From a virus: DNA of 25,191 nt. This document shows positions 1,976-25,151 of the stretch, piece after piece (position 1 is the first letter of the stretch; every line of letters starts with the position of its first letter). The notes beneath the pieces are model-generated. The model was not told the origin of the DNA, did no database searches, and saw nothing but the letters and a program-made list of their open reading frames with translations. The translations under genes were made by a program, and so were the position numbers. Where the stretch lies: the IMG/VR virus record IMGVR_UViG_3300024999_000365, positions 1 through 25,191 of that record; one strand, written 5' to 3'.

Positions 1976-3097
1976 CTATTGTTTATAATTGTTTAGTTCT
2001 TTATTTAATATTTCTTCTATATTGTCTATGTCCCAGTACCAAATCTCTAACAATTGAATATTATTTTCTTTTGCATACTCTCTTTTTCTTCTATCATGTT
2101 CTTGTTGATCTTTAAATGCTTGTTTGTTTTTATGAAATCCTTTTCTATATTCCATATGTTGAATTCCTTGAAACTCTATTAAAAGATTAAATTCTTTAAT
2201 ATAGAAATCATAAGAAAGATTTCCATTGTTAACTCCAACTAGTCCATGGTATTCTCTTTGTGCAATATAATCAATAAAATGTAATTCTAAATATCTTCTA
2301 ATATATTGTTCACCTTTTGACTCTGCACAAATAGGACACCGTTGGCCATTAATAAAATTGTTAGCGTTCATGGGAAATATTTCACCACAAGTTTTATGCG
2401 TAAAAGATAAAAGTGATTTATTATTTATATATTCTCCATCAACAGTATATTCATCATTTACCAAATCATATACTTCTTTTTGAACTATTTCAATAGTTTT
2501 TCTTTCAAGGCCGGAACATATAATACATTTATTGCCACTTAAAATATCATTAGGAATAACCATATATTCTTGATTACAAACATTATGTTTCATTTTTATC
2601 TTAGTTGAACTTCTAATGTATTCACCTAAAACTTCATATTCATCACCATATTTTTCATATATTTTCTGTTTGAATTCTTCTGTATTACTCTGCTTACTTT
2701 CATTACAATTTGGACATCTACATTTACCATGTGTAAAATTAGCAGGAGTTACCTCGTATTCATATTCACAAGTATTATGTTTCATTTTAATATACTCATG
2801 TATACCTGTATGTTCACCCAGTACGGTATATTCATTTGCAACTAAATCATAAATTTCTTTCTTAAATTGCTCTGTAGTTTTATTATATATTCTTTCTTTT
2901 ACTGGAGTACATTTATCACATTGTTTTTTATCGAAGTCTCTAAACATTCTAAAAGACGTAGAAAATGGTTCTCCACATTTACATATTAAATCTAAATCTT
3001 TTCTAATACCTAAATATTCTTTGCTTTTTAATTTACAACTAGATTCACTTTCAACTTCTATGTAATTTTTTACATCAATATATAATAATTTTCTCAT
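1976..3097 (-). CDS. Zinc-finger array plus Vsr/EDxHD-like endonuclease
   Basis: A 373-aa protein. Residues about 39-63 have a first CxC...CxxC pair. Three repeats of about 60 residues follow (about 74-131, 138-194, 201-257). Each begins EFKxxIY or a variant, continues EYxVxGEY, and has HNTC/HNVC/HKTC followed by CPNC, CIIC or CPIC, which fits one zinc site per repeat. The C-terminal 110 residues look like a Vsr-fold PD-(D/E)XK nuclease: YDFYI (296-300), IEFQGIQH (307-314) and EIWYWDID near 351. This layout is known from free-standing homing endonucleases of phages. The start ATG 3095-3097 overlaps the upstream stop by one base (TAATG), with GGAGG 8 bases before it, so translation is coupled to the upstream nuclease. 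It probably cuts DNA site-specifically; the target is unknown. Confidence 0.8.
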   Translation of the reverse strand: MRKLLYIDVKNYIEVESESSCKLKSKEYLGIRKDLDLICKCGEPFSTSFRMFRDFDKKQCDKCTPVKERIYNKTTEQFKKEIYDLVANEYTVLGEHTGIHEYIKMKHNTCEYEYEVTPANFTHGKCRCPNCNESKQSNTEEFKQKIYEKYGDEYEVLGEYIRSSTKIKMKHNVCNQEYMVIPNDILSGNKCIICSGLERKTIEIVQKEVYDLVNDEYTVDGEYINNKSLLSFTHKTCGEIFPMNANNFINGQRCPICAESKGEQYIRRYLELHFIDYIAQREYHGLVGVNNGNLSYDFYIKEFNLLIEFQGIQHMEYRKGFHKNKQAFKDQQEHDRRKREYAKENNIQLLEIWYWDIDNIEEILNKELNNYKQ

Positions 3098-4488
3098 TAT
3101 TTATTACCTCCTGTAGAGGACAATGATGTTATTTTGTTATTATCTTCTAAGTCTTTTTTAGAAATTCTCCTTAATTCTCCAAAATCATAATCAAATTGTC
3201 CTTGGGAGTTAATTATTTTTGAATTGTCAATGTCAAATTTTATCCATGAATGACCTGAATTAATATATTCTTTGGCATAAGTAATCATTTCTATTATTAT
3301 TTTATCAGAAGGAATATAATCATTTATCGATATAATTCTAATTAACATCCATCCTTTTAATCGGATAAATATTTCTCGTCTTTTTTCTTTATTATAAAAT
3401 TCGTCAATTGATATTTGATTTAATTTTATACTATTTGTATGACCTCCACCATCATACTCGATACAAATAAATTCTTTTGGAAATGCAATATCTAAACTAC
3501 AAGTCGAAATAGGGTAATTTAATTCTCCATTCAATAAATTACATAAATATTCTTGTTGTTTAGATGTTGGTGAAGTATTATTCAAATACATAGTTTTACG
3601 AGATTTTTCTATGATTTTTACATCTCTAAATGGATGACCACCTACATATTTTATCCACGTTTTATTGCGTTTATCTTTTACTTCATCATTTAATAAACTA
3701 CATGAAAATCCGTATCTATCTACACATGTGTTTTTTACTTTTTCTTTAATTTCTTCATTTTTGGATGGATTATCAAAACCATATTTTTCAATATTAGTAT
3801 TAATAATTTTATTCTTAATATCTTTATTCTGTATAGGATATAAAACATCATAATTATCCATCATAGTTTTTTTACTTTTATTTTGTACATCAATATTATT
3901 TAATGAACAAATTTCACCATATCGTTCAATATTAGTATCAATTTGTTTTTGTCTAACTTCGTCATTTTGAGAAACCCATTCAACACCATATTTCCTTAAA
4001 TTAGTTTTTATAACTTTTTCTTTCCACTCTTCTGTTTGAGCATAATTTTCTGCTCCATATTTATCTAAGCATGTATTTTTAATTTTATCTTTAATTTCTT
4101 CAGATTGAAAAGTATTTTCTACTCCGTATTTATCTAAACATGTATTTTTGCGTTTATTACTGACTTCATTTAACGAATTTGTACTTTCAACACCATATTT
4201 TAATAAATTACTTTCCTTAACTTTTAATGATTGACATTTCTTACAGCAATCTTTATGTATAATTGCTTTTTCATTCTGCTTGATATAATCCTGATATTTT
4301 TTATTTGTAGTATTTATAAAACAATAATCACAAAGTACATCTACATATATATCGCTATTACCTTTTGACACATCTTCCACTTTGACTTCAAATTCATCAT
4401 TATATTGCGTAAAAACATATCCTTTGTTAATATAGTATTTTTTGTTTCTTTTATTCCAGTTAATTAATACAGTTTTAGTAAGCACCAT
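3097..4488 (-). CDS. KYG-repeat DNA-binding array plus Vsr/EDxHD-like endonuclease
   Basis: A 463-aa protein. The N-terminus has a possible zinc site (CDYC at 53-56, DCCKKC at 80-85). Residues about 93-300 hold eight or nine degenerate 23-residue repeats with the consensus NTCLDKYGVEN...EEIKDKIK. Such KYG repeats occur as DNA-contacting arrays in phage and viral endonucleases. The nuclease domain follows: LDIAF (332-336), IEYDGGGH (343-350), then a basic helix and the strand GWMLIRI. The D...E-x-D-x-x-x-H layout matches EDxHD/Vsr-type homing nucleases of the I-Bth0305I kind. An SD (GGAGGTAA) lies 6 bases before ATG 4486-4488. It is the first gene of a two-gene operon with its own consensus promoter and structured leader. 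A protein of related architecture lies directly downstream. Confidence 0.8.
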   Translation of the reverse strand: MVLTKTVLINWNKRNKKYYINKGYVFTQYNDEFEVKVEDVSKGNSDIYVDVLCDYCFINTTNKKYQDYIKQNEKAIIHKDCCKKCQSLKVKESNLLKYGVESTNSLNEVSNKRKNTCLDKYGVENTFQSEEIKDKIKNTCLDKYGAENYAQTEEWKEKVIKTNLRKYGVEWVSQNDEVRQKQIDTNIERYGEICSLNNIDVQNKSKKTMMDNYDVLYPIQNKDIKNKIINTNIEKYGFDNPSKNEEIKEKVKNTCVDRYGFSCSLLNDEVKDKRNKTWIKYVGGHPFRDVKIIEKSRKTMYLNNTSPTSKQQEYLCNLLNGELNYPISTCSLDIAFPKEFICIEYDGGGHTNSIKLNQISIDEFYNKEKRREIFIRLKGWMLIRIISINDYIPSDKIIIEMITYAKEYINSGHSWIKFDIDNSKIINSQGQFDYDFGELRRISKKDLEDNNKITSLSSTGGNK

Positions 4489-7016: not shown

Positions 7017-8237
7017 CTACCATAAACTCTCAACCTTCAATCTAACAAAACCACTACAATTCACACCACTAACATGAAGTCTCACATATCCAATACTTGT
7101 ACCAGCTTTAATACTACAATTATTACCACTATAAGTAATAGTTACTAAATTTGTACTAGAGACAGCATCATCTGCTAATACCAACCAACTAGTAGCAATA
7201 TCACTCGTCACAATCCCACTATCCATGAATTGTGCAATGGCAGTTATTGTTTGACCAACTTTTAAAATTCCAGATGGAACAATATTAACTGTATAATTAT
7301 GAAATTCCACTGTACTAACTGAAATACTAATGGAATCATTTACACCTTGATATGTTGCTGTAATTGTACAATTTCCTTCTGAATTAATTGCAGTTACTAA
7401 ACCACTAGAATTAACTATACATACTAATTCATCAGATGAACTATAGGTAATTACAGGAGATAAAACTTCAACATTATTATCAGTTACAGAAACATTTAAT
7501 TGCAATGTTTCACCTTGCGTAACACTTGCTGAAATTCCATTCAAGATGTCAATTCCATAACTATGCGTAGGTACTACTTGTTCAACTTCGCTATACTTCA
7601 TCTTGAAAATTAGTAATCCAGGAATGCTAATGTCGTTACCAACACTAGAAATCACATAATTGTATAAACCTAATTTATAAATATCATTTACTTTAATTTG
7701 TCTAGAAATTTCAGTATTTGGCAATGTTAGAGGAACCATATTATCGACTGTTGTAATTGTTGTAGATTCATCTGTATTGATTGAGATATTACCAACAATA
7801 CAAGGGATGGAAATTGGATCAATTAAAATTGAATTTTCATCGTAAAAGAGAAGTGTGTTGTTTGATTGTTGAATTGTACAATCATGTATAAAATCAATTG
7901 TATTTGTACTGACCACAATCCAATCTTTATCATTGTATTTAACTAAATCACCAACATTAGCAATAAAAAATGTATCTTTAAATACAATTCTTTTAAAATC
8001 ATCTAAAGATACTTTCTCATTTGCATTAGTAATACTTTTAAATTGAAGAAAATGTACGGGGATTGTAGTATATATTAAATCATTATTATGTTTGTACTGA
8101 ATTTCTTTATAACTAACATTACTATCAAAACTGTCTAAAAAACTATCTTTAATAGAATTAATATATTCATCACGCATACTCAGTCCATCATTAGATAATC
8201 TTTTTTTATAAGTATTAACTAAATCACTAAATGCCAA
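7017..8237 (-). CDS. Head-closure-like protein with C-terminal Ig-like (BIG2) domain
   Basis: A protein of about 406 aa. The first 180 residues (AFSDLVNTYKKRLS..., then VGDLVKYNDKDWIVVSTNTID) look like a head-closure/connector protein: short helices, then a beta-barrel with a 'wet paper clip'-style strand. From about residue 230 there is a bacterial Ig-like group 2 domain with the signature ILNGISASVTQGETLQLNVSV...YSSSDELVCIVNSSGLVTAINSEG. A second beta-rich segment follows. Ig-like domains on phage virions often bind surface glycans or decorate the particle. TTG 8235-8237 is preferred because GGTGG lies 6 bases before it and gives (M)AFSDL. The TTG at 8241-8243 overlaps the previous gene's stop. 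Confidence 0.65.
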   Translation of the reverse strand: MAFSDLVNTYKKRLSNDGLSMRDEYINSIKDSFLDSFDSNVSYKEIQYKHNNDLIYTTIPVHFLQFKSITNANEKVSLDDFKRIVFKDTFFIANVGDLVKYNDKDWIVVSTNTIDFIHDCTIQQSNNTLLFYDENSILIDPISIPCIVGNISINTDESTTITTVDNMVPLTLPNTEISRQIKVNDIYKLGLYNYVISSVGNDISIPGLLIFKMKYSEVEQVVPTHSYGIDILNGISASVTQGETLQLNVSVTDNNVEVLSPVITYSSSDELVCIVNSSGLVTAINSEGNCTITATYQGVNDSISISVSTVEFHNYTVNIVPSGILKVGQTITAIAQFMDSGIVTSDIATSWLVLADDAVSSTNLVTITYSGNNCSIKAGTSIGYVRLHVSGVNCSGFVRLKVESLW

Positions 8238-8239
8238 AA

Positions 8240-8887
8240 TCAACCACCAGCCGATCCTGTTAAATTGTTAGGATCTTTATGGTAAGAATACATAATCATG
8301 TCTTGTATTAAACTATTTTTAGCATTATTTACTGTTTCTCTATTTTCTTTTATATGATTGGCTTGACTATGTACTTGATAATCTTTACCATACACTATTT
8401 GATTTAAATGCTTATTTTTCTGTAATTGAAATTCAAGATAAGGAATAGTCATTCCCCTAGAAACAAAAGTTATTTCTTGCATAGACAAACTATCTATAAA
8501 TTCGCCAACTTTATAATTTCCAATATAAATGTCGCTATTTAATATAGGAGTGGGGGAGATAGTTATTTTATTTAATACAGAATCATATGTATAGTTTTCT
8601 GTCTCTGTATTATCAACTGAAATATAAAAATTACCATTAATATAAGGAGTGATAGTCAACATGAAAACTCCAGATAATCCATCAGCAACAAAAACTTCAC
8701 TTTGTTGTTGAGTTAGAGTATAATTATTTAAATCTGAGTATAAATAATCTCCACATATTCCAATTGATCTATAAAGATATTTTGACAGTTCTATAGTAAG
8801 ATTATCAACTGTATAATTATTAATAAATCTTGAATCATCAATAGTTAATAAGAATTGTTCAAATGGAGAATCAAAACTTGTAGACAT
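8240..8887 (-). CDS. Head-tail connector-type virion protein
   Basis: A 215-aa protein with SD AAAGGAGTGA, 7 bases before ATG 8885-8887. The N-terminal helix (FEQFLLTIDDSRFI...LSKYLYRSIGICGDYL) and the C-terminal helical part (MQEITFVSRGMTIPYLEFQLQKNKHLNQIVYGKDY...) flank a beta insertion of about 85 residues (FMLTITPYINGNFYISVDN...). The helical frame with a beta insert, followed at once by a head-closure-like gene, fits an adaptor bound beneath the portal. This is a positional and fold-level inference; I recognise no specific family. The stop TGA (8240-8242) precedes the next proposed start by two bases, so translation is probably coupled. Confidence 0.55.
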   Translation of the reverse strand: MSTSFDSPFEQFLLTIDDSRFINNYTVDNLTIELSKYLYRSIGICGDYLYSDLNNYTLTQQQSEVFVADGLSGVFMLTITPYINGNFYISVDNTETENYTYDSVLNKITISPTPILNSDIYIGNYKVGEFIDSLSMQEITFVSRGMTIPYLEFQLQKNKHLNQIVYGKDYQVHSQANHIKENRETVNNAKNSLIQDMIMYSYHKDPNNLTGSAGG

Positions 8888-15493: not shown

Positions 15494-17362
15494 TTAATTA
15501 TCGAAGTCCTTCCAAGGGGTTGATGTTGGAGGTATGAAACAATCTTCGTAATTATTGTTGTCTGATTCTTTCATTAAATCTTTTTCTAAAATTGAAGCGT
15601 AGAAGTTGGAATATGAGATCGCAGAATATCTATCCTTTCGTTGTCCAGACATTTCTTTTAATTTAATATATCCTGTACTTTGATTGATTTCTGACTCCAA
15701 CAAGACCATTTCATTAACCAAAGCATCTGTATGAGCAAAAGGAGCTTCTAGTTTAGCAACCATTTCAGGAGACAATTTAGATAGGTTTTCAATTTTAGAA
15801 ATGAAATCATATGAGTCATTTTTATTTACTAACAATTTAATTTTATTTCTCTTGATATTATCTCTTAACGATACTGCTATTTCAGAATTGAATTCTGAGG
15901 TTGCAGATATTGTATAAATCTTTTGATCTGCATTTGGCACTAAGCACCTTTCCTGCATTTTTTCTTCATTCATACTATTTAAAGCAGGATATTCAATTCC
16001 TCTATCTTTATCATATAGTCTTTTACATAGATTATCATAAACTCCAATTCCATTTCCTTGTCTATCAATTACTATAAAATCACAATCTAAATCATCAAAT
16101 AATTGTCTAATTCTTATTGCTTGTAATTCGGTATGAGCACCTACCATAGTTTCCATATAGGGTATAATTCTTTCATAACCTTTAAAATTATTTCCATCTC
16201 TTTTAGACACCATTGGAAGTAATTGCATCAACATAAATACTGAAGCATCGTTTTGTTTAGTCCCAATTGCAGCTAAATCACAACTTAATATTCTGACTTC
16301 TCCTTTTTCTTTTGGAGAATATTTAAATTTTTTATCTTTTATGGTTTCATAAAATGGTTTTGGATATATAGGTTTATATATCTTTCTTATTTGAGTCAAT
16401 TCATCTGTTTTAAAAAAAGCTTTTTCGCTCTCTCCAAAAAATAAACAGTCCATTTCCATTGTCCAACTAACAATATCCATATCTTCTTCTGCTAGTTCAT
16501 CAAGCAATTGATCTTTATTAGTTAAATTTTCTTTAATTGCAAATTGATACGGAAGTCCACAAATAAAATATTTTTTACCCCTTAACATTGCATTTAAAAA
16601 TACTTTATATCTATCAAAAGACCAATTAAATTTATACCAACAAGACGATAAAAATATTTCCTGATTTCGTTCTAGATATTCTTGCTTGTTTTTGTATTCT
16701 GGCTTCTCTAAAAAACCTGGTTGTCTAGAAGCAGCTAAAAACCTTCTTAAAACTCCTCTATAAATTACAGGGTCAATCATCCGAAATTCGTCCAAGATCA
16801 AAATATTTGCGCGGGCTGATCTGGCTCCTTGTGTGGCTGCTGTAACTTTAATCCATGAACCATTTACGAACTCAACATTTGGGTCATCTGTATTCATTGA
16901 TGTTCTAATGGAACCTTTAATTTCTCGTCTTAGCATACCTGTTTTAGATTTAGCTATTAATTCAGGAATTTTTTCAGTTACAATCTTCATTGCCTGAGAT
17001 TTTTGCCCAGCAGCCACAACTATTTTTGTCTCAGGCCATAGAATGCATTTTATTACACAATATAAAGCTGTCAAATAGGTTTTGCCCAATCCTCTGCTAG
17101 CGAGAAACATTGTGTAATTATAATGAACCATACAATATAGTAATATTTTTTGAAAAGTTTTCAAAGATAGTCCTAAATACTCTTCTGCAAAAATATCTGG
17201 GCGAGAACGATAAAAAGAAGCCCAGTCTCCAACACCATTCATTAGCTTTTCTGACCTAGTTAGTTTTTGATCTCCTTTATTATAATTTCTTGTTTTATCA
17301 AAAACACCAACTGTATTTGTTGCTTTATTTCTTTTTACTTCGAAGTTTTTATATCCAGCGAT
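15494..17362 (-). CDS. terL: Large terminase subunit (ATPase-nuclease), AUC start proposed
   Basis: The DNA packaging motor. From the first ATG (17240-17242) the protein would be 582 aa; the reading frame is open for 40 more codons upstream. ATC 17360-17362 lies 6 bases after TTAGGTGA and gives (M)AGYKNFEVKRN..., a basic N-terminus usual for this family. The ATG has only a weak AGG 12 bases upstream. In 622-residue numbering, Walker A SRGLGKT is at about 89-95, and Walker B is ILILDEF. The RNase H-like nuclease acids are in LSCDLAAIG, FIVIDRQG and AHTDALV. The WASFYRSRPDIFAEEYLG block upstream of the ATPase is also typical. It follows the zinc-finger gene by 19 bases. Confidence 0.9.
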   Translation of the reverse strand: MAGYKNFEVKRNKATNTVGVFDKTRNYNKGDQKLTRSEKLMNGVGDWASFYRSRPDIFAEEYLGLSLKTFQKILLYCMVHYNYTMFLASRGLGKTYLTALYCVIKCILWPETKIVVAAGQKSQAMKIVTEKIPELIAKSKTGMLRREIKGSIRTSMNTDDPNVEFVNGSWIKVTAATQGARSARANILILDEFRMIDPVIYRGVLRRFLAASRQPGFLEKPEYKNKQEYLERNQEIFLSSCWYKFNWSFDRYKVFLNAMLRGKKYFICGLPYQFAIKENLTNKDQLLDELAEEDMDIVSWTMEMDCLFFGESEKAFFKTDELTQIRKIYKPIYPKPFYETIKDKKFKYSPKEKGEVRILSCDLAAIGTKQNDASVFMLMQLLPMVSKRDGNNFKGYERIIPYMETMVGAHTELQAIRIRQLFDDLDCDFIVIDRQGNGIGVYDNLCKRLYDKDRGIEYPALNSMNEEKMQERCLVPNADQKIYTISATSEFNSEIAVSLRDNIKRNKIKLLVNKNDSYDFISKIENLSKLSPEMVAKLEAPFAHTDALVNEMVLLESEINQSTGYIKLKEMSGQRKDRYSAISYSNFYASILEKDLMKESDNNNYEDCFIPPTSTPWKDFDN

Positions 17363-20371: not shown

Positions 20372-21583
20372 TTAAACCACACAATCATAAGCACACAAAA
20401 ATCCTTGCTCACCAATGATAGTTATAGTTTGACTTGCTTCACCAACATATCTGTGATTAGTTGAATATTCATCGAAATTAACGAAAACTCCACCCGTAAT
20501 AACCTTACATTTATCCACAGTAATTATCTCAAATCTGTGTCTGTGACCTAAGAAAATGAATTTAGGTTTCTTGTCTAATAATGATAAAAATCTACTAGGA
20601 GCATTTTTAGGCACATCATTATCGCCATGACTCAAGCAACAATAATGACCTTTAACATAAAATTCAGCAATTGTATTATCTAATATAGACTTCTCAAACT
20701 TAATATTCTTTAAATTTGCAGTTCTCAATTCCATAAATTCTAATACAAAATTCTCATATCTATCTTTGTTTTCTGCCTTATCCTTAAATTCATTATTCCG
20801 ACTGTGATTTCCGGTTACAAAATGCACAATAATTTCTTCAAAATGATTACTCAATTTCTCAATAAATTTAGACATATATTCAGAAAATCTTTTAGTTTGT
20901 TCAACAATGCCATATTGATTATTCCTTACTATGGTTTCATGAATAATTCCTGATAGGGCATCCCCTGAGAAGCATAAATGGCACTTATTAATCTTTTCTT
21001 TCTTTTTAATATCCAATATTTGCAAAGTGTAATTAGCTAATCTTTTAAGGAAAACATCTTCATTGTATTTCTCAAATTCATTATCTACAGTTAAACCAAA
21101 ATGGGTATCGCTAATCTGAACTACCATCTCATTATCTTCACCGTATGTATGTTTTGGTTCAATAAATTCTAAATGTTTTAAATCTTTAATTGACTCCTTA
21201 ATTAAATCATTTAAAGATTCTTTACGGGCAAGGTATCTTATGTCTTTATTTATAGATGTTCTTAAATCTTGAAGTTTTACTCTTTCCTTCTTGAGATTTA
21301 TTTCTTTCAAATTAAGGTCAGAAATTTGCCCACCATCATTTTTAATTTCTACAGATTCTTTATAATTAGTAGTAGATGGAGCAGGAATGATTAATTCTCT
21401 ATCACAATCACCAATAATAATATCTCTTGCTTTTAATGTTCCATTTGCTTTGCGATATTTCTTAAATTTACTCCTCAATGCCTCTCCACTGGTATAATTA
21501 AATTCCAATGCCAACGAATCCCATGATCTATTCAGAGTTTTATTATATTTTTTGTAACAAATTTCTATTAACTTACTATCCAA
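20372..21583 (-). CDS. Metallophosphoesterase (calcineurin-like) with N-terminal HTH-like segment
   Basis: A 403-aa protein. Residues about 12-45 look like a helix-turn-helix (NRSWDSLALEFNYTSGEALRSKFKKYR). A charged helical linker leads to a two-metal phosphoesterase domain with every signature in order: SDTHFG (158-163), SGDALSG (206-212), TGNHSR (257-262), LSHGD (317-321) and LGHRHR (345-350). These are the metal and catalytic ligands of the Mre11/SbcD and calcineurin superfamily. A nuclease or phosphodiesterase acting on phage DNA or nucleotides is likely; the putative DNA-binding start favours DNA. TTG 21581-21583 is the start, with GAGG 6 bases upstream. No SbcC-type ATPase is in the window. 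Confidence 0.85.
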   Translation of the reverse strand: MDSKLIEICYKKYNKTLNRSWDSLALEFNYTSGEALRSKFKKYRKANGTLKARDIIIGDCDRELIIPAPSTTNYKESVEIKNDGGQISDLNLKEINLKKERVKLQDLRTSINKDIRYLARKESLNDLIKESIKDLKHLEFIEPKHTYGEDNEMVVQISDTHFGLTVDNEFEKYNEDVFLKRLANYTLQILDIKKKEKINKCHLCFSGDALSGIIHETIVRNNQYGIVEQTKRFSEYMSKFIEKLSNHFEEIIVHFVTGNHSRNNEFKDKAENKDRYENFVLEFMELRTANLKNIKFEKSILDNTIAEFYVKGHYCCLSHGDNDVPKNAPSRFLSLLDKKPKFIFLGHRHRFEIITVDKCKVITGGVFVNFDEYSTNHRYVGEASQTITIIGEQGFLCAYDCVV

Positions 21584-21618
21584 TTTATACCTCGTTACAA
21601 TTTATTTTCATCTTCAAT

Positions 21619-21642
21619 AATCACAAATCGACCAATGTGATT
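21619..21642. terminator. Small hairpin between the zinc-ribbon gene and the phosphoesterase
   Basis: AATCACA and TGTGATT form a 7-bp stem with a 10-base loop. The T-rich flank (TTTATATT) is on the plus strand, whereas genes run on the minus strand, so termination in the useful direction is doubtful. It starts two bases after the stop of the 47-aa gene. Confidence 0.3.
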
Positions 21643-21643
21643 T

Positions 21644-21787
21644 TTATATTACCGTAAAGTAACCACAATCCTGACAATACAATATTGTTTTTCCACAATA
21701 AAATTTTAAATAAAACCTATTCTTACCACAAGTAAGACTTGGGCAAGTTGTATCTGCGTTTTCTATATCATAAACTAATTCATACAT
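21644..21787 (-). CDS. 47-aa zinc-ribbon protein
   Basis: A short gene with a textbook SD (AAGGAGG, 6 bases before ATG 21785-21787) and an uninterrupted frame of 47 codons. The sequence begins MYELVYDIENADTTC and carries C15-x4-C20 and C38-x2-C41 (YCQDCGYFTV), with an extra C31 between them. This is the layout of a small zinc ribbon, as in transcription- or translation-associated phage mini-proteins. It lies immediately downstream of the candidate large non-coding RNA and upstream of the metallophosphoesterase. It may bind nucleic acid, conceivably the neighbouring RNA; that last point is speculation from position. Confidence 0.75.
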   Translation of the reverse strand: MYELVYDIENADTTCPSLTCGKNRFYLKFYCGKTILYCQDCGYFTVI

Positions 21788-21835
21788 TGATAATCCTCCT
21801 TAGGGTAATACAATAACGTCACTCATACATAATAA

Positions 21836-22870
21836 AATGAGAAGCCTACAATCGTGTTGCGAGCTTCAATAAATTAAAATACATATAGTGTAGGACTCTA
21901 AAAATAGTACGCCATCGAACAGTCTGGAAACCAATCCCTTCAATTGCGTCATATACAAAACTCATCCTACCTTAGTTTTTAACAATTCTCTCGTACTCAT
22001 CTGAGCAAATTATCATGACAAATGTAATAAATACACTTGCAATCCTCATGCTTTTCAGCAAGGGTAATTATATTCATCCATTTAAGGACTAATGATATTC
22101 CTAATTCCAATTAAAATACAGTTTTCTTGGATTGTTAATGCCGTTTTTATCTGAGATATCACGGCAAAACTCATTTAGTATAATATACTCATTTTTTAAA
22201 TGGATACTCTATGAAGTCAGTTTATGAAACTACTCCCAATTTAGATAATAAGGGAGACGGTTATTTACTCCCCTTATTGAAATGATAGATGGGTTTAGTC
22301 TTTACAACATCATTACCATCCTATAGTTCTTCAATGTATCCATATCTTTTTGTTAGAGTCATCACGACTCAATTCAATTTGTTGTGGTTGGACTTATGTT
22401 TTTCAACTGCCCTACCACCCATTAATTTGTTATTATGAAGGAATTAGTAGCTTGAGCAGATAATATTTTACAATATAAATCTTACATAATCCCTTCATAA
22501 TACAAGCAAAAAATGCATCTAAAAACCTCATACTCTTTATCAGAGCAATGCCTGTCTTTCAAGGTCTTACTAACTTATGCACATGATTTTAGGGAAGGTT
22601 CGCAATTGCACTAGCGTTGACCTAATTTTATCAAACCCTAAAACAAGTTTTTATTGTTGCTGTTTGGCTTATGCAATTTCCAAAAAAATCATCACCACAA
22701 CAATTTATAGAGGGAAGTTTAAATTTTCTATCATAAGCATGTAAATTTATGATATCAGACCACAATAGTAGGGCGGTGTATCCTACTCTTTCGAGTGCGT
22801 CAGGAACCATTTCTGACATTATTGTGATTAGTTAAGGTAATTACCAATGAATCGCCAAATTCACCATATC
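21836..22870 (-). ncRNA. Candidate large ornate structured non-coding RNA (about 1 kb)
   Basis: A stretch of about 1 kb with no SD-preceded gene but many helices in minus-strand RNA. Examples: CACAAUA/UAUUGUG (22820-22826 with 22761-22767), enclosing a hairpin with ACUC-GAAA-GAGU (22785-22796); GCUUAUG/CAUAAGC (22732-22738 with 22667-22673); nested CAAAC/GUUUG and AACAA/UUGUU (22632-22666); a 16-bp helix 22487-22502 with 22431-22446 whose one G-U pair exists only on this strand; GAGUC/GACUC (22356-22370); AAUAAGGG-GAG/CUCCCUUAUU (22247-22278); UGCCGU/ACGGCA (22139-22166); UGCU-GAAA-AGCA (22049-22060); and a closing GAAGC/GCUUC hairpin with a T-rich tail (21841-21867). Size, phage context and the GNRA loops recall the GOLLD and ROOL giant RNAs, but I cannot assign a family. 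The ends are approximate. Confidence 0.65.
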
Positions 22871-23045
22871 TGTAAGAGAAGATATTTTAACCAACAGTTT
22901 CATCATGCAATTTAAACATCTCCTTTTCTAAAGATATCACTTTTTATCTTACTCTGTAATAACTATTGAATATTAAGTATTATTAATTAATAGTACACAC
23001 AATTATAGTATTTACAAATTAGATTAAAACCTTTAATTGTAGAAC
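22871..23045. promoter_or_regulatory. AT-rich stretch upstream of the structured RNA; -10 candidate
   Basis: TATAAT on the minus strand (23002-23007) just after the 56-aa gene could start the large RNA near 22995, but the -35 region is poor. A GGAG at about 22920 precedes only very short ORFs (10 and 21 codons). Nothing else is visible. Confidence 0.3.
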
Positions 23046-23216
23046 TTATTCAGCGTCTTCTCCATCTAAAGACAAATATTGCTCGCAACCATTGATTGTA
23101 ATATCTAAAATTCCTGGTTTCTTTTCTGTACCTTCTAGTTTATACAGTTTTGTAGACCACTCACATACACTAGCTTTCACACAAGATTCACAGAATTGAT
23201 TATTTAAGTTTGCCAT
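23046..23216 (-). CDS. 56-aa Cys-containing small protein
   Basis: A complete short frame from ATG 23214-23216 to TAA 23046-23048. AAGGTGG lies 12 bases upstream. The sequence has C9-x2-C12-x5-C18 (FCESCVKASVC) near the N-terminus, a Lys-rich middle and one further Cys (NGCEQYL) before an acidic tail (DGEDAE). The Cys spacing suggests one metal site. It follows the HU gene and precedes the structured RNA region, reading in the same direction. Function is unknown. It resembles the many small phage zinc proteins that modulate host enzymes, but nothing specific supports that here. Confidence 0.65.
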   Translation of the reverse strand: MANLNNQFCESCVKASVCEWSTKLYKLEGTEKKPGILDITINGCEQYLSLDGEDAE

Positions 23217-23293
23217 TGTTGATATATTCCACCTTTTAAATTTTATTTATTTTAATATAATAGGGAGATTTCACTCCATATTCTAATCAAAAG

Positions 23294-23338
23294 GCATAAT
23301 TATTGCCACTAACGTATCTGCTCAAATTAGGCAGTACG
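23294..23338 (-). terminator. Hairpins after the HU gene, possible terminator
   Basis: On the minus strand, CGTACTGC pairs with GCAGATACG (8 bp, one bulged A; 23338-23313). A short GGCA/TGCC hairpin (23308-23294) follows, running into TTTTGATT. The second stem is weak, so termination is uncertain. Confidence 0.4.
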
Positions 23339-23355
23339 GAATGTTATACTTTTAA

Positions 23356-23634
23356 TTACTGAACAACTTTATCTTTGAGCGACTTATAGATAGTCGTCTT
23401 AATTGCATTCTTTGCTGGAATTTGAATTACTTCTCCATTTTGTGGGTTGCGCCCAGTGCGTGAACTGCGTTCTACAATTTTCATTCCAAAATGAGAACTA
23501 ACTTTAACTTCTTCTTTATTTTCAACGCAATCTTCTAATACTTTTAGAAATGCCATTAGTTGTTTTTCACTATCTTTTTTTGTACCTTCTGTGATTTGAG
23601 CCATACGTGCGATAATTTCTTTTGTGTTTGCCAT
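23356..23634 (-). CDS. HU-family DNA-binding protein
   Basis: A 92-aa histone-like protein that bends and compacts DNA. The N-terminal helices (IIARMAQITEGTKKDSEKQLMAFLKVLEDCV) and VKVSSHFGMKIVERSSRTGRN lead into the family signature RTGRNPQNGEVIQIPA on the DNA-binding arm (about 57-72), followed by a C-terminal helix. The conserved Arg-Asn-Pro of the arm tip, which intercalates in DNA, is present. Length is normal for HU. SD AAAGGGG lies 11 bases before ATG 23632-23634. Phage-coded HU (as SPO1 TF1) assists replication or late transcription. A GTAC-TTT-GTAC inverted repeat lies about 40 bases upstream of the start. Confidence 0.92.
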   Translation of the reverse strand: MANTKEIIARMAQITEGTKKDSEKQLMAFLKVLEDCVENKEEVKVSSHFGMKIVERSSRTGRNPQNGEVIQIPAKNAIKTTIYKSLKDKVVQ

Positions 23635-23867: not shown

Positions 23868-25151
23868 TTAATCTAATAAATCTGCTAATTGTGCTGTTTT
23901 TGATCTCTCTGTAGTACAAAGTTCAATACAACCAAATAATTCATTACCTTTTAAACCATTTATCATTTTCTTTAATCCAGAATTTCTTTCAAATAAAGAA
24001 TCATCAACTTGTTTAAAATCCCCATTAATCCATAATGCAGAACCTTCTGCAAGTCTACCAAGAAGCAATTGTATATGTTGTTTAGTAAGGTTTTCACCTT
24101 CTGTAACATATACTAAACTACGTTTTAAATCTCTTCCTCTAATAGTTGCTAATTGTTGAAGTTCAATTATTCCTTCATCAATCAATTTAATCAAACCATC
24201 AATTCCTCCAACATGATCTGCTAAAGGCATTACATATGGTAACATTTTCTCAAATTCAGAACCTTTAAGATAGCCTATACTTTTTGTATTAGAAACCTCA
24301 TACATATTTCTAACAAATACTATTTTATCAAAAACACCCTGTTTTACCATAGAAATAGCATTGGTAGCCATAATCAGGTCTTTACCTGAACCATATTTAC
24401 CGAAAATGGCCTTGCAAGTAATTAATTTATTTTGAAATAAATCTAAAGCTAATTCTTGTTGTATATTACGTGGCTTAATTTTACCAGTAAAAGAAAAAGA
24501 ATCTGGTTGTTTTTCAAACTTCTCGTATTTAGGTTTTTTACTTTTATAAGAGAATGGAATTTTTGGTGTAATAGTAGTATCAACTAAATCAAAAAACTCA
24601 GTTCCATTCCATCTTTGCTTATCAACAATTTCACAATCTTCATTTTTTATAATTAGATATTCATTAGTTAATAAATCAAAACAATTAGATGGATTTTCAT
24701 AGAATGAAGCTAGTTCATCATCTGATAATATTACTTCCCTATATCCTTTATAAGATTTATCCTCCATAGTTTTAAATTCAAAAAGCTCACAAGGAATATT
24801 ATATGCTTCCGCTTTTATCCATAGATTAAAATCATCCGTCATAAAAATATATTCATTATCATCTATGTATGTTTCATAAGCAAAACCCAAAATAAAATTA
24901 TCATTTTTGTGATCTAAGAATCTATTCTCTAATTTAAATTTATAATTTTTTACTATTGTAACTCTTTTGTCTTGCATTGCTTTTTTGATATCTCTAAGAG
25001 CTTTTCTGGCTTGATAACCAACAGTTTCGCTCTTCTTTAACCCATCTAACTCCTCAATTGTTATTATAGGTATTTTAACATGAAGATAGTTATTTAGATC
25101 GAAGTTATGATTCAGCATTATATTTGTTTCTACAAATACTTTACTGGGCAA
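23868..25151 (-). CDS. PIN-PhoH family protein (PhoH2-like)
   Basis: A 427-aa protein. Residues 1-130 form a PIN-type RNase domain: VFVETNIMLN, IITIEELDGLKK and the late acidic FMTDDFNLW. A linker (about 140-220) leads to the PhoH ATPase. Walker A is GKYGSGKD (251-258), which has Asp where Thr or Ser normally follows the Lys. The Walker B region is VYVTEGENLTKQH (348-360), with TEGEN in place of DEAQN. Sensor block NGDFKQVD (376-383). PhoH2 proteins couple RNA unwinding and cleavage; phoH is widespread in phages, its role there unresolved. TTG 25149-25151 is the only start possible, because an in-frame TGA lies 9 bases upstream; GAGGG lies 10 bases before it. The motif changes raise doubt about ATP hydrolysis. 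Confidence 0.85.
   Translation of the reverse strand: MPSKVFVETNIMLNHNFDLNNYLHVKIPIITIEELDGLKKSETVGYQARKALRDIKKAMQDKRVTIVKNYKFKLENRFLDHKNDNFILGFAYETYIDDNEYIFMTDDFNLWIKAEAYNIPCELFEFKTMEDKSYKGYREVILSDDELASFYENPSNCFDLLTNEYLIIKNEDCEIVDKQRWNGTEFFDLVDTTITPKIPFSYKSKKPKYEKFEKQPDSFSFTGKIKPRNIQQELALDLFQNKLITCKAIFGKYGSGKDLIMATNAISMVKQGVFDKIVFVRNMYEVSNTKSIGYLKGSEFEKMLPYVMPLADHVGGIDGLIKLIDEGIIELQQLATIRGRDLKRSLVYVTEGENLTKQHIQLLLGRLAEGSALWINGDFKQVDDSLFERNSGLKKMINGLKGNELFGCIELCTTERSKTAQLADLLD

What the first reader, a model, noticed from the sequence alone, without database searches (positions are those of the whole stretch)
21836..22870. Possible undescribed large ornate RNA of about 1 kb in a phage genome
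Seen: no SD-led gene for 1 kb, yet at least ten helices of 4-16 bp can be drawn. The 16-bp helix (22431-22446 with 22487-22502) contains a C/A mismatch on the plus strand but a G-U pair on the minus strand. Two GAAA tetraloops (22785-22796, 22049-22060) exist only on the minus strand. A domain-closing helix (22761-22767/22820-22826) surrounds a GNRA hairpin. CTCCC at 22232-22236 and at 22268 onward compete for the same GGGAG. Known: GOLLD and ROOL are large structured RNAs found in phages and prophages of Firmicutes, often induced in lytic growth. Inference: this is a member, a distant relative or a new class.
Basis: partly seen in the sequence, partly recalled or inferred. Interest (0 to 1): 0.88.

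Follow-up and report, generated by a model that had tools for sequence, protein, structure and literature searches.

The report
Array of small structured phage RNAs
The 1-kb gene-free stretch is real structured RNA, but relatives show it is a row of about ten separately exchangeable small RNAs, one already known and most undescribed, sitting beside phage tRNAs at the front of the late-gene operon of phages related to Bacillus phage SPbeta.

Summary
One part is a known Rfam family: skipping-rope RNA (RF02924) at 22760-22827. No other Rfam family reached gathering score; GOLLD, ROOL, OLE and HEARO gave nothing even at E 10. About 40 related phage contigs carry this stretch at one locus (YonO-like RNA polymerase / PhoH / HU gene / island / zinc-ribbon ORF / exonuclease / terminase). 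It breaks into about ten conserved blocks. These are gained and lost independently, sometimes reordered, split by whole protein genes, and packed 3-16 nt from tRNA genes. So it is an RNA array, not one 1-kb RNA. The commonest block (22139-22179) is a new single-copy H-type pseudoknot in 27 of 31 complete islands, with 23 different compensating second stems. The window is an SPbeta relative; SPbeta has a 1.7-kb unannotated gap at the same place, where a YonO-dependent late-operon start upstream of an "unannotated non-coding RNA" was mapped by others. Best reading: the island is the head of the late transcript, cut into several small RNAs. Their action is unknown; decoy or antitoxin-mimic roles are speculation. 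New variant of a known kind.

The parts
22927..22985 (-). Block A: conserved ~60-nt element at the head of the island (AGAGUAAGAUAAAAAGUG core)
   Evidence: nhmmer, 8-9 distinct copies; structure unresolved by RNAalifold
22756..22878 (-). Block SR: skipping-rope RNA (Rfam core 22760-22827) with conserved upstream hairpin
   Evidence: RF02924 38.6 bits, gathering 36.7; relatives L005, L024, L037 score 69-71 bits; covarying pairs and loop-loop GGU/ACC to GGC/GCC change
22514..22717 (-). Block B: ~205-nt structured element, 89-97% identical between contigs, with sharp boundaries
   Evidence: stops in all three frames in all 11 homologues
22431..22502 (-).
   Evidence: related hairpin with altered inner part in L062, L069, L002, L012
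22351..22440 (-). Block C
   Evidence: nhmmer, 6-9 distinct copies
22251..22322 (-). Block D1
   Evidence: 4-5 copies
22208..22248 (-). Block D2: hairpin GGAAG[U/A/G]AGUUU-AAACUG[A/U/C]CUUC
   Evidence: 13 distinct copies; one pair in three compensated states; lies downstream of E in L012, L016, L026, L049
22139..22179 (-). Block E: single-copy H-type pseudoknot ACUAAAUGAGUUUUGCCGUGAUAUCUCAGAUAAAAACGGCA
   Evidence: 32 distinct sequences, 23 different P2 helices; 90% of cells paired vs 28-47% when slid; one copy per genome
21980..22094 (-). Block F (contains the GCUGAAAAGC hairpin)
   Evidence: always directly before G
21888..21980 (-). Block G: tRNA-sized element closed by GUAGGAU/AUCCUAC; abuts tRNA-Asn in relatives
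   Evidence: 11-13 distinct copies; 3-11 nt before tRNA-Asn in L008, L030, L037, L042
21791..21873 (-). Block G2: strong hairpin at the 3' end of the island
   Evidence: 4 copies
21644..21787 (-). 47-aa zinc-ribbon-like ORF with strong SD, closing the island in most relatives
23356..23634 (-). HU-like DNA-binding protein (YonN position), upstream flank
   Evidence: phrog_379 E 6.4e-22; synteny with SPBc2
23868..25151 (-). PhoH-like protein, upstream flank; YonO-like RNA polymerase lies just upstream of it in relatives
20372..21583 (-). Exonuclease (YonJ position), downstream flank
   Evidence: phrog_284 E 1.6e-59; synteny
15494..17242 (-). Terminase large subunit, 50% identical to SPbeta YonF; a downstream late gene

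Best explanation
The stretch is an RNA island: a row of about ten small structured non-coding RNA units (skipping-rope, a new pseudoknot and several undescribed elements) on the minus strand, in the slot where relatives also keep tRNA genes. By synteny with SPbeta it is the 5' leader of the late operon, made by a YonO-type phage RNA polymerase during lytic growth. It is then probably cut, like a tRNA precursor, into several stable RNAs that act on their own. Shown here: conserved and covarying structure, strand, modularity, tRNA adjacency, synteny. Shown by others for SPbeta: a YonO-dependent start upstream of a non-coding RNA and the late genes. Inferred: that the window is transcribed the same way, that the transcript is cut into units, and that the units act in trans.
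For: Rfam skipping-rope in the island and in relatives. Independent presence or absence, reordering, and whole ORFs between blocks. Blocks E and G end 3-16 nt before tRNA-Asn, -Ser or -Phe; skipping-rope ends 7 nt before tRNA-Arg in phage BSP14; drum RNA sits between tRNA-Asn and tRNA-Tyr in phage phi127. Pseudoknot E. YonO homologue upstream in 15 contigs. SPbeta gap at the same place with DUF3800-VIII RNA; in Goe14 depositors annotated skipping-rope plus DUF3800-VIII there. YonO-dependent start upstream of yonK and an unannotated ncRNA, confirmed by primer extension (PMC5467207). Pieces of the SPbeta island recur singly in Herelleviridae, some inside tRNA clusters upstream of the portal gene.
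Against: No transcript data exist for these uncultured phages. Some neighbours (D1-D2, F-G, G-G2) mostly travel together where both occur and may be single RNAs. GOLLD can carry tRNAs inside its linker (PMC12286853), so tRNA adjacency alone does not disprove a longer RNA. The window contig ends inside phoH, so its YonO gene is inferred. My Rfam scan did not reproduce the skipping-rope call in Goe14.
Confidence: 0.68

Rival explanations
1. One large ornate RNA of about 1.2 kb (GOLLD- or ROOL-like in function), with a fixed core and variable peripheral domains into which genes and tRNAs have been inserted in some phages.
For: Block order is mostly conserved; F-G and D1-D2 are contiguous; GOLLD linkers can hold tRNAs (PMC12286853); phage K has long ncRNAs next to tRNAs (PMC9241854).
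Against: No GOLLD/ROOL/OLE/HEARO match at E 10; 500-aa ORFs and HNH genes between blocks; D2 changes sides of E; many islands keep only E or only G.
Confidence: 0.17
2. The island is a cis-acting leader of the late transcript: the nascent RNA binds the YonO-type polymerase or shields the 5' end, as put RNA does for host polymerase in phage HK022 (own knowledge), and the blocks are not released.
For: Position directly after the mapped late start in SPbeta (PMC5467207) and upstream of late genes everywhere; E is nearly universal and single copy.
Against: Distance from E to the first ORF varies from about 170 to 1200 nt; tRNAs lie in the same row; related units occur in Herelleviridae, whose late genes are not known to use YonO.
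Confidence: 0.2
3. Some units are counter-defence RNAs: pseudoknot E would mimic a type III antitoxin (ToxI/CptI) and neutralise a host ribonuclease toxin, as the pseudo-ToxI of phage PhiTE does.
For: E is an H-type pseudoknot of ~40 nt with short L1 and A-rich L3, as described for CptI and, in part, ToxI (PMC4627078, PMC5086642); phage precedent (PMC3475682); rapid turnover of the other units.
Against: Single copy, no tandem repeats, no toxin gene seen (control uninformative); E itself is conserved rather than fast-changing; the motif is absent from 85,000 species genomes apart from two matches without P2.
Confidence: 0.1

Closest known systems
skipping-rope RNA (Rfam RF02924)
   Same: 22760-22827 matches above the curated threshold; same stems, and the loop-loop contact is kept
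   Different: Only one of about ten units; the rest of the island is unrelated to it
Unannotated ncRNA region yonN-yonK of phage SPbeta (and Goe14 with skipping-rope + DUF3800-VIII)
   Same: Same slot between the HU and exonuclease genes, same strand, head of the YonO-transcribed late operon, packed with structured RNA
   Different: Apart from skipping-rope the units are different RNA families; no sequence match to the window blocks
GOLLD and ROOL large ornate RNAs
   Same: Phage-borne, near tRNA genes, structured, probably lytic
   Different: No Rfam match at E 10; modular array rather than one conserved giant RNA
Phage tRNA/ncRNA clusters (Herelleviridae such as BSP14; drum RNA in phi127; phage K lnc001/lnc002)
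   Same: Small structured RNAs interleaved with tRNAs, often just upstream of portal or head genes
   Different: The window island has no tRNA and holds undescribed families
Type III antitoxins ToxI / CptI; preQ1-I riboswitch
   Same: Block E shares the H-type pseudoknot layout with A-rich third loop
   Different: No tandem repeats or toxin gene; no Rfam match; not directly before a gene

Membership tests
skipping-rope RNA RF02924 | Score above Rfam gathering threshold over the full model | tested here: met
   38.6 vs 36.7 bits, model 1-80 of 80, E 4.5e-7
skipping-rope RNA RF02924 | Covarying stems and loop-loop pseudoknot | tested here: met
   Alignment of 4 homologues: compensatory pairs in P1 and the 3' hairpin; GGU/ACC vs GGC/GCC in the loops; few sequences
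GOLLD / ROOL / OLE / HEARO | Match to the Rfam covariance model | tested here: not met
   No match at E <= 10 on 21600-23300, both strands
GOLLD / ROOL / OLE / HEARO | One contiguous conserved architecture of >500 nt | tested here: not met
   Blocks present independently, reordered, and interrupted by ORFs and tRNAs
Phage tRNA/ncRNA array | Distinct RNA units interleaved with tRNA genes at short spacing | tested here: met
   3-16 nt from E/G to tRNA in relatives; 7 nt from skipping-rope to tRNA in BSP14; the window itself has no tRNA
Phage tRNA/ncRNA array | Co-transcription and processing into stable RNAs | not testable with these tools
   Late start upstream of the ncRNA known only for SPbeta (PMC5467207)
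Type III antitoxin | H-type pseudoknot | tested here: met
Type III antitoxin | Tandem repeats next to a ToxN-family toxin gene | tested here: not met
   One copy per genome; no ToxN match in 16 phage records, though the control was silent
preQ1-I riboswitch RF00522 | Rfam match and position just before a start codon | tested here: not met
   No match at E 10; 170-1200 nt to the next ORF

The most novel reading that the evidence does not exclude
SPbeta-like phages and Herelleviridae share exchangeable cassettes of small RNA effectors placed at or near the front of their late genes; most are undescribed families, and at least the near-universal pseudoknot E is an RNA that binds a protein of the host or the phage polymerase, so the island works as an RNA counterpart of a phage anti-defence or takeover locus.
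Probability: 0.2. Interest if true: 0.85.

Novelty: new variant of a known kind. Interest (0 to 1): 0.62.

Why it matters
It turns a vague 'ornate RNA' into a defined locus: a modular RNA array at the head of the late operon, shared by a large group of uncultured phages and, with other contents, by the model phage SPbeta. It adds about seven or more RNA families absent from Rfam, one with a strongly covarying single-copy pseudoknot. It also puts skipping-rope, drum and DUF3800-VIII RNAs, all of unknown function, into one genomic setting. The SPbeta version lies in the standard lab strain Bacillus subtilis 168, so expression, processing and need can be tested at once.

Tried and rejected
blastn of the stretch against 50,697 named phages: no match. 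Protein-coding reading: stops in all frames, no SD, indels not in threes. GOLLD/ROOL/OLE/HEARO: no match. A conserved AT-rich stretch at 23211-23251 looked like a late promoter but is a common SD leader also found before HU genes. Sigma-70 promoter scan: fewer hits than shuffles. Type III antitoxin: fold fits, but no repeats and no toxin. Two bacterial-genome hits of the E pattern (L095, L096) and the L078 hit lack P2 pairing and were discarded. Block A: RNAalifold found no supported structure. My first promoter alignment script timed out. The Rfam source paper for skipping-rope (PMC5737381) is not held. The mapped SPbeta start (position 2225998 of B. subtilis 168) could not be placed on SPBc2 coordinates here.

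Full report
What the stretch is. The window is a 25-kb viral contig with its genes on the minus strand. Between an HU-like gene plus a 56-aa ORF (23046-23216) and a 47-aa zinc-ribbon-like ORF (21644-21787) lies 1.2 kb with no supported gene. Minus-strand folding is stronger than shuffles (-272.9 vs -248.3 +/- 9.6 kcal/mol), while the plus strand is weaker than shuffles (-223.1). Rfam recognises one part, skipping-rope RNA, at 22760-22827. This is exactly the 'domain-closing helix around a GNRA hairpin' of the finding.

Relatives. The exonuclease and PhoH genes led to about 40 related contigs, and DNA patterns for three blocks and later for a fourth led to more. Matches to the window stretch come in short blocks at variable spacing. 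Profiles define blocks A, SR, B, C, D1, D2, E, F, G and G2. They fall at one locus: PhoH, HU, island, zinc-ribbon ORF, exonuclease. Some blocks are far more conserved than the flanking proteins: block B is 94% identical in DNA in L016, whose exonuclease is 51% identical in protein.

One RNA or many. Of 31 islands with both flanks, E is in 27, G in 11, D2 in 8, B in 7 and the others in 2-6. Blocks occur with and without their window neighbours. D2 lies after E in four contigs. Whole ORFs (HNH-type genes of about 227 aa and ORFs up to about 500 aa) lie between blocks in 16 intervals. tRNA genes stand 3-16 nt after E or G in eight contigs. The same packing holds for known families elsewhere: skipping-rope ends 7 nt before tRNA-Arg in Bacillus phage BSP14, and drum RNA lies between tRNA-Asn and tRNA-Tyr in Mammaliicoccus phage phi127. 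I conclude that this is an array of units. D1-D2 and F-G may be single RNAs, because they mostly stay together where both occur.

The pseudoknot E. The consensus is ACUAAAURGGUUU-P2-AUAACCUA-GAUAAAA-P2'. Among 32 distinct sequences P1 occurs as UAGG/CCUA, UGGG/CCCA, UGAG/CUCA and UAAG/CUUA. P2 takes 23 different sequences, with mean longest helix 6.2 bp against 4.4 (maximum 5.0) in 2000 permutations. With the naive alignment 90% of cells pair, against 28-47% when slid. It occurs once per genome in contigs of up to 230 kb. A scan of 85,000 species genomes gave two pattern matches, neither with P2. No Rfam family matches it. D2 and skipping-rope also show compensatory changes.

Where it sits in the phage programme. 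The terminase is 50% identical to YonF of SPbeta. SPBc2 has the order yonO, yonN (HU), an unannotated 1.68-kb gap, yonK, yonJ (exonuclease), and on to yonF. Relatives of the window have a YonO-like RNA polymerase upstream of PhoH in 15 contigs, 50% or 22-26% identical. Forrest et al. [quoted passage not shown] The SPbeta gap holds a DUF3800-VIII RNA. In Goe14 the depositors annotated skipping-rope and DUF3800-VIII in it; my scan reproduced only the second. Segments of the SPbeta gap recur singly in Herelleviridae upstream of the portal gene, in BSP14 and SBSphiJ1 among tRNAs. So the island is a position filled with changing RNA families, and in SPbeta it heads the late transcript.

How it probably works. 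Most likely the phage polymerase makes the island as the first part of the late transcript and host tRNA-processing enzymes free the units. The transcription step is known only for SPbeta, and the processing is inferred from spacing. What the units do is unknown. A cis role in late transcription and a trans role as protein-binding or decoy RNAs both remain open; E resembles type III antitoxins in fold only (PMC4627078, PMC5086642, PMC3475682).

Known or new. Phage RNA clusters beside tRNAs are known (GOLLD, ROOL, phage K ncRNAs: PMC12286853, PMC9241854). New here, as far as Rfam and the papers held can tell, are the families other than skipping-rope, the modular turnover at one locus, and its link to the YonO late operon.

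Noticed in passing
L002, L005, L012, L037, L067 and others, between the ~227-aa HNH ORF and block E (e.g. L005:4267-4765): A further conserved non-coding element of about 450 nt follows the HNH-like gene; its ends are complementary over about 20 nt (CTAACCAGAAGCAAAGC ... GCTTGCTTTTCTGGTTAG). No Rfam match; absent from the window. Possibly a mobile HNH-associated RNA.
   Followed up: partly
L097:7614-9294 (SPBc2 yonN-yonK gap): SPbeta itself has 1.68 kb of unannotated, strongly folded sequence (-491 vs -443 +/- 5 for shuffles) with one Rfam hit (DUF3800-VIII); pieces occur separately in other Bacillus phages.
   Followed up: partly
L100:10524-10918 (Mammaliicoccus phage phi127): drum RNA (RF02958) sits inside a tRNA-Asn / tRNA-Tyr / tRNA-Pro cluster; the drum RNA and the tRNA-Tyr are not annotated in the record.
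   Followed up: no
L042 and L109 (contig IMGVR_UViG_3300001868_000037); L046 and L110: Two copies of the PhoH-HU-G-zinc ribbon-exonuclease stretch lie in one short contig, with divergent proteins: either a chimeric assembly or a duplicated island.
   Followed up: no
window 1976-4488: Two adjacent ORFs (373 and 463 aa) with repeated Cys-rich or 'KYGVEN' motifs look like homing-endonuclease-type genes inserted among tail genes (reading of the translation only).
   Followed up: no
window 7017-8243: Structural ORF with a stretch that reads like a bacterial Ig-like (Big_2) domain (reading of the translation only).
   Followed up: no
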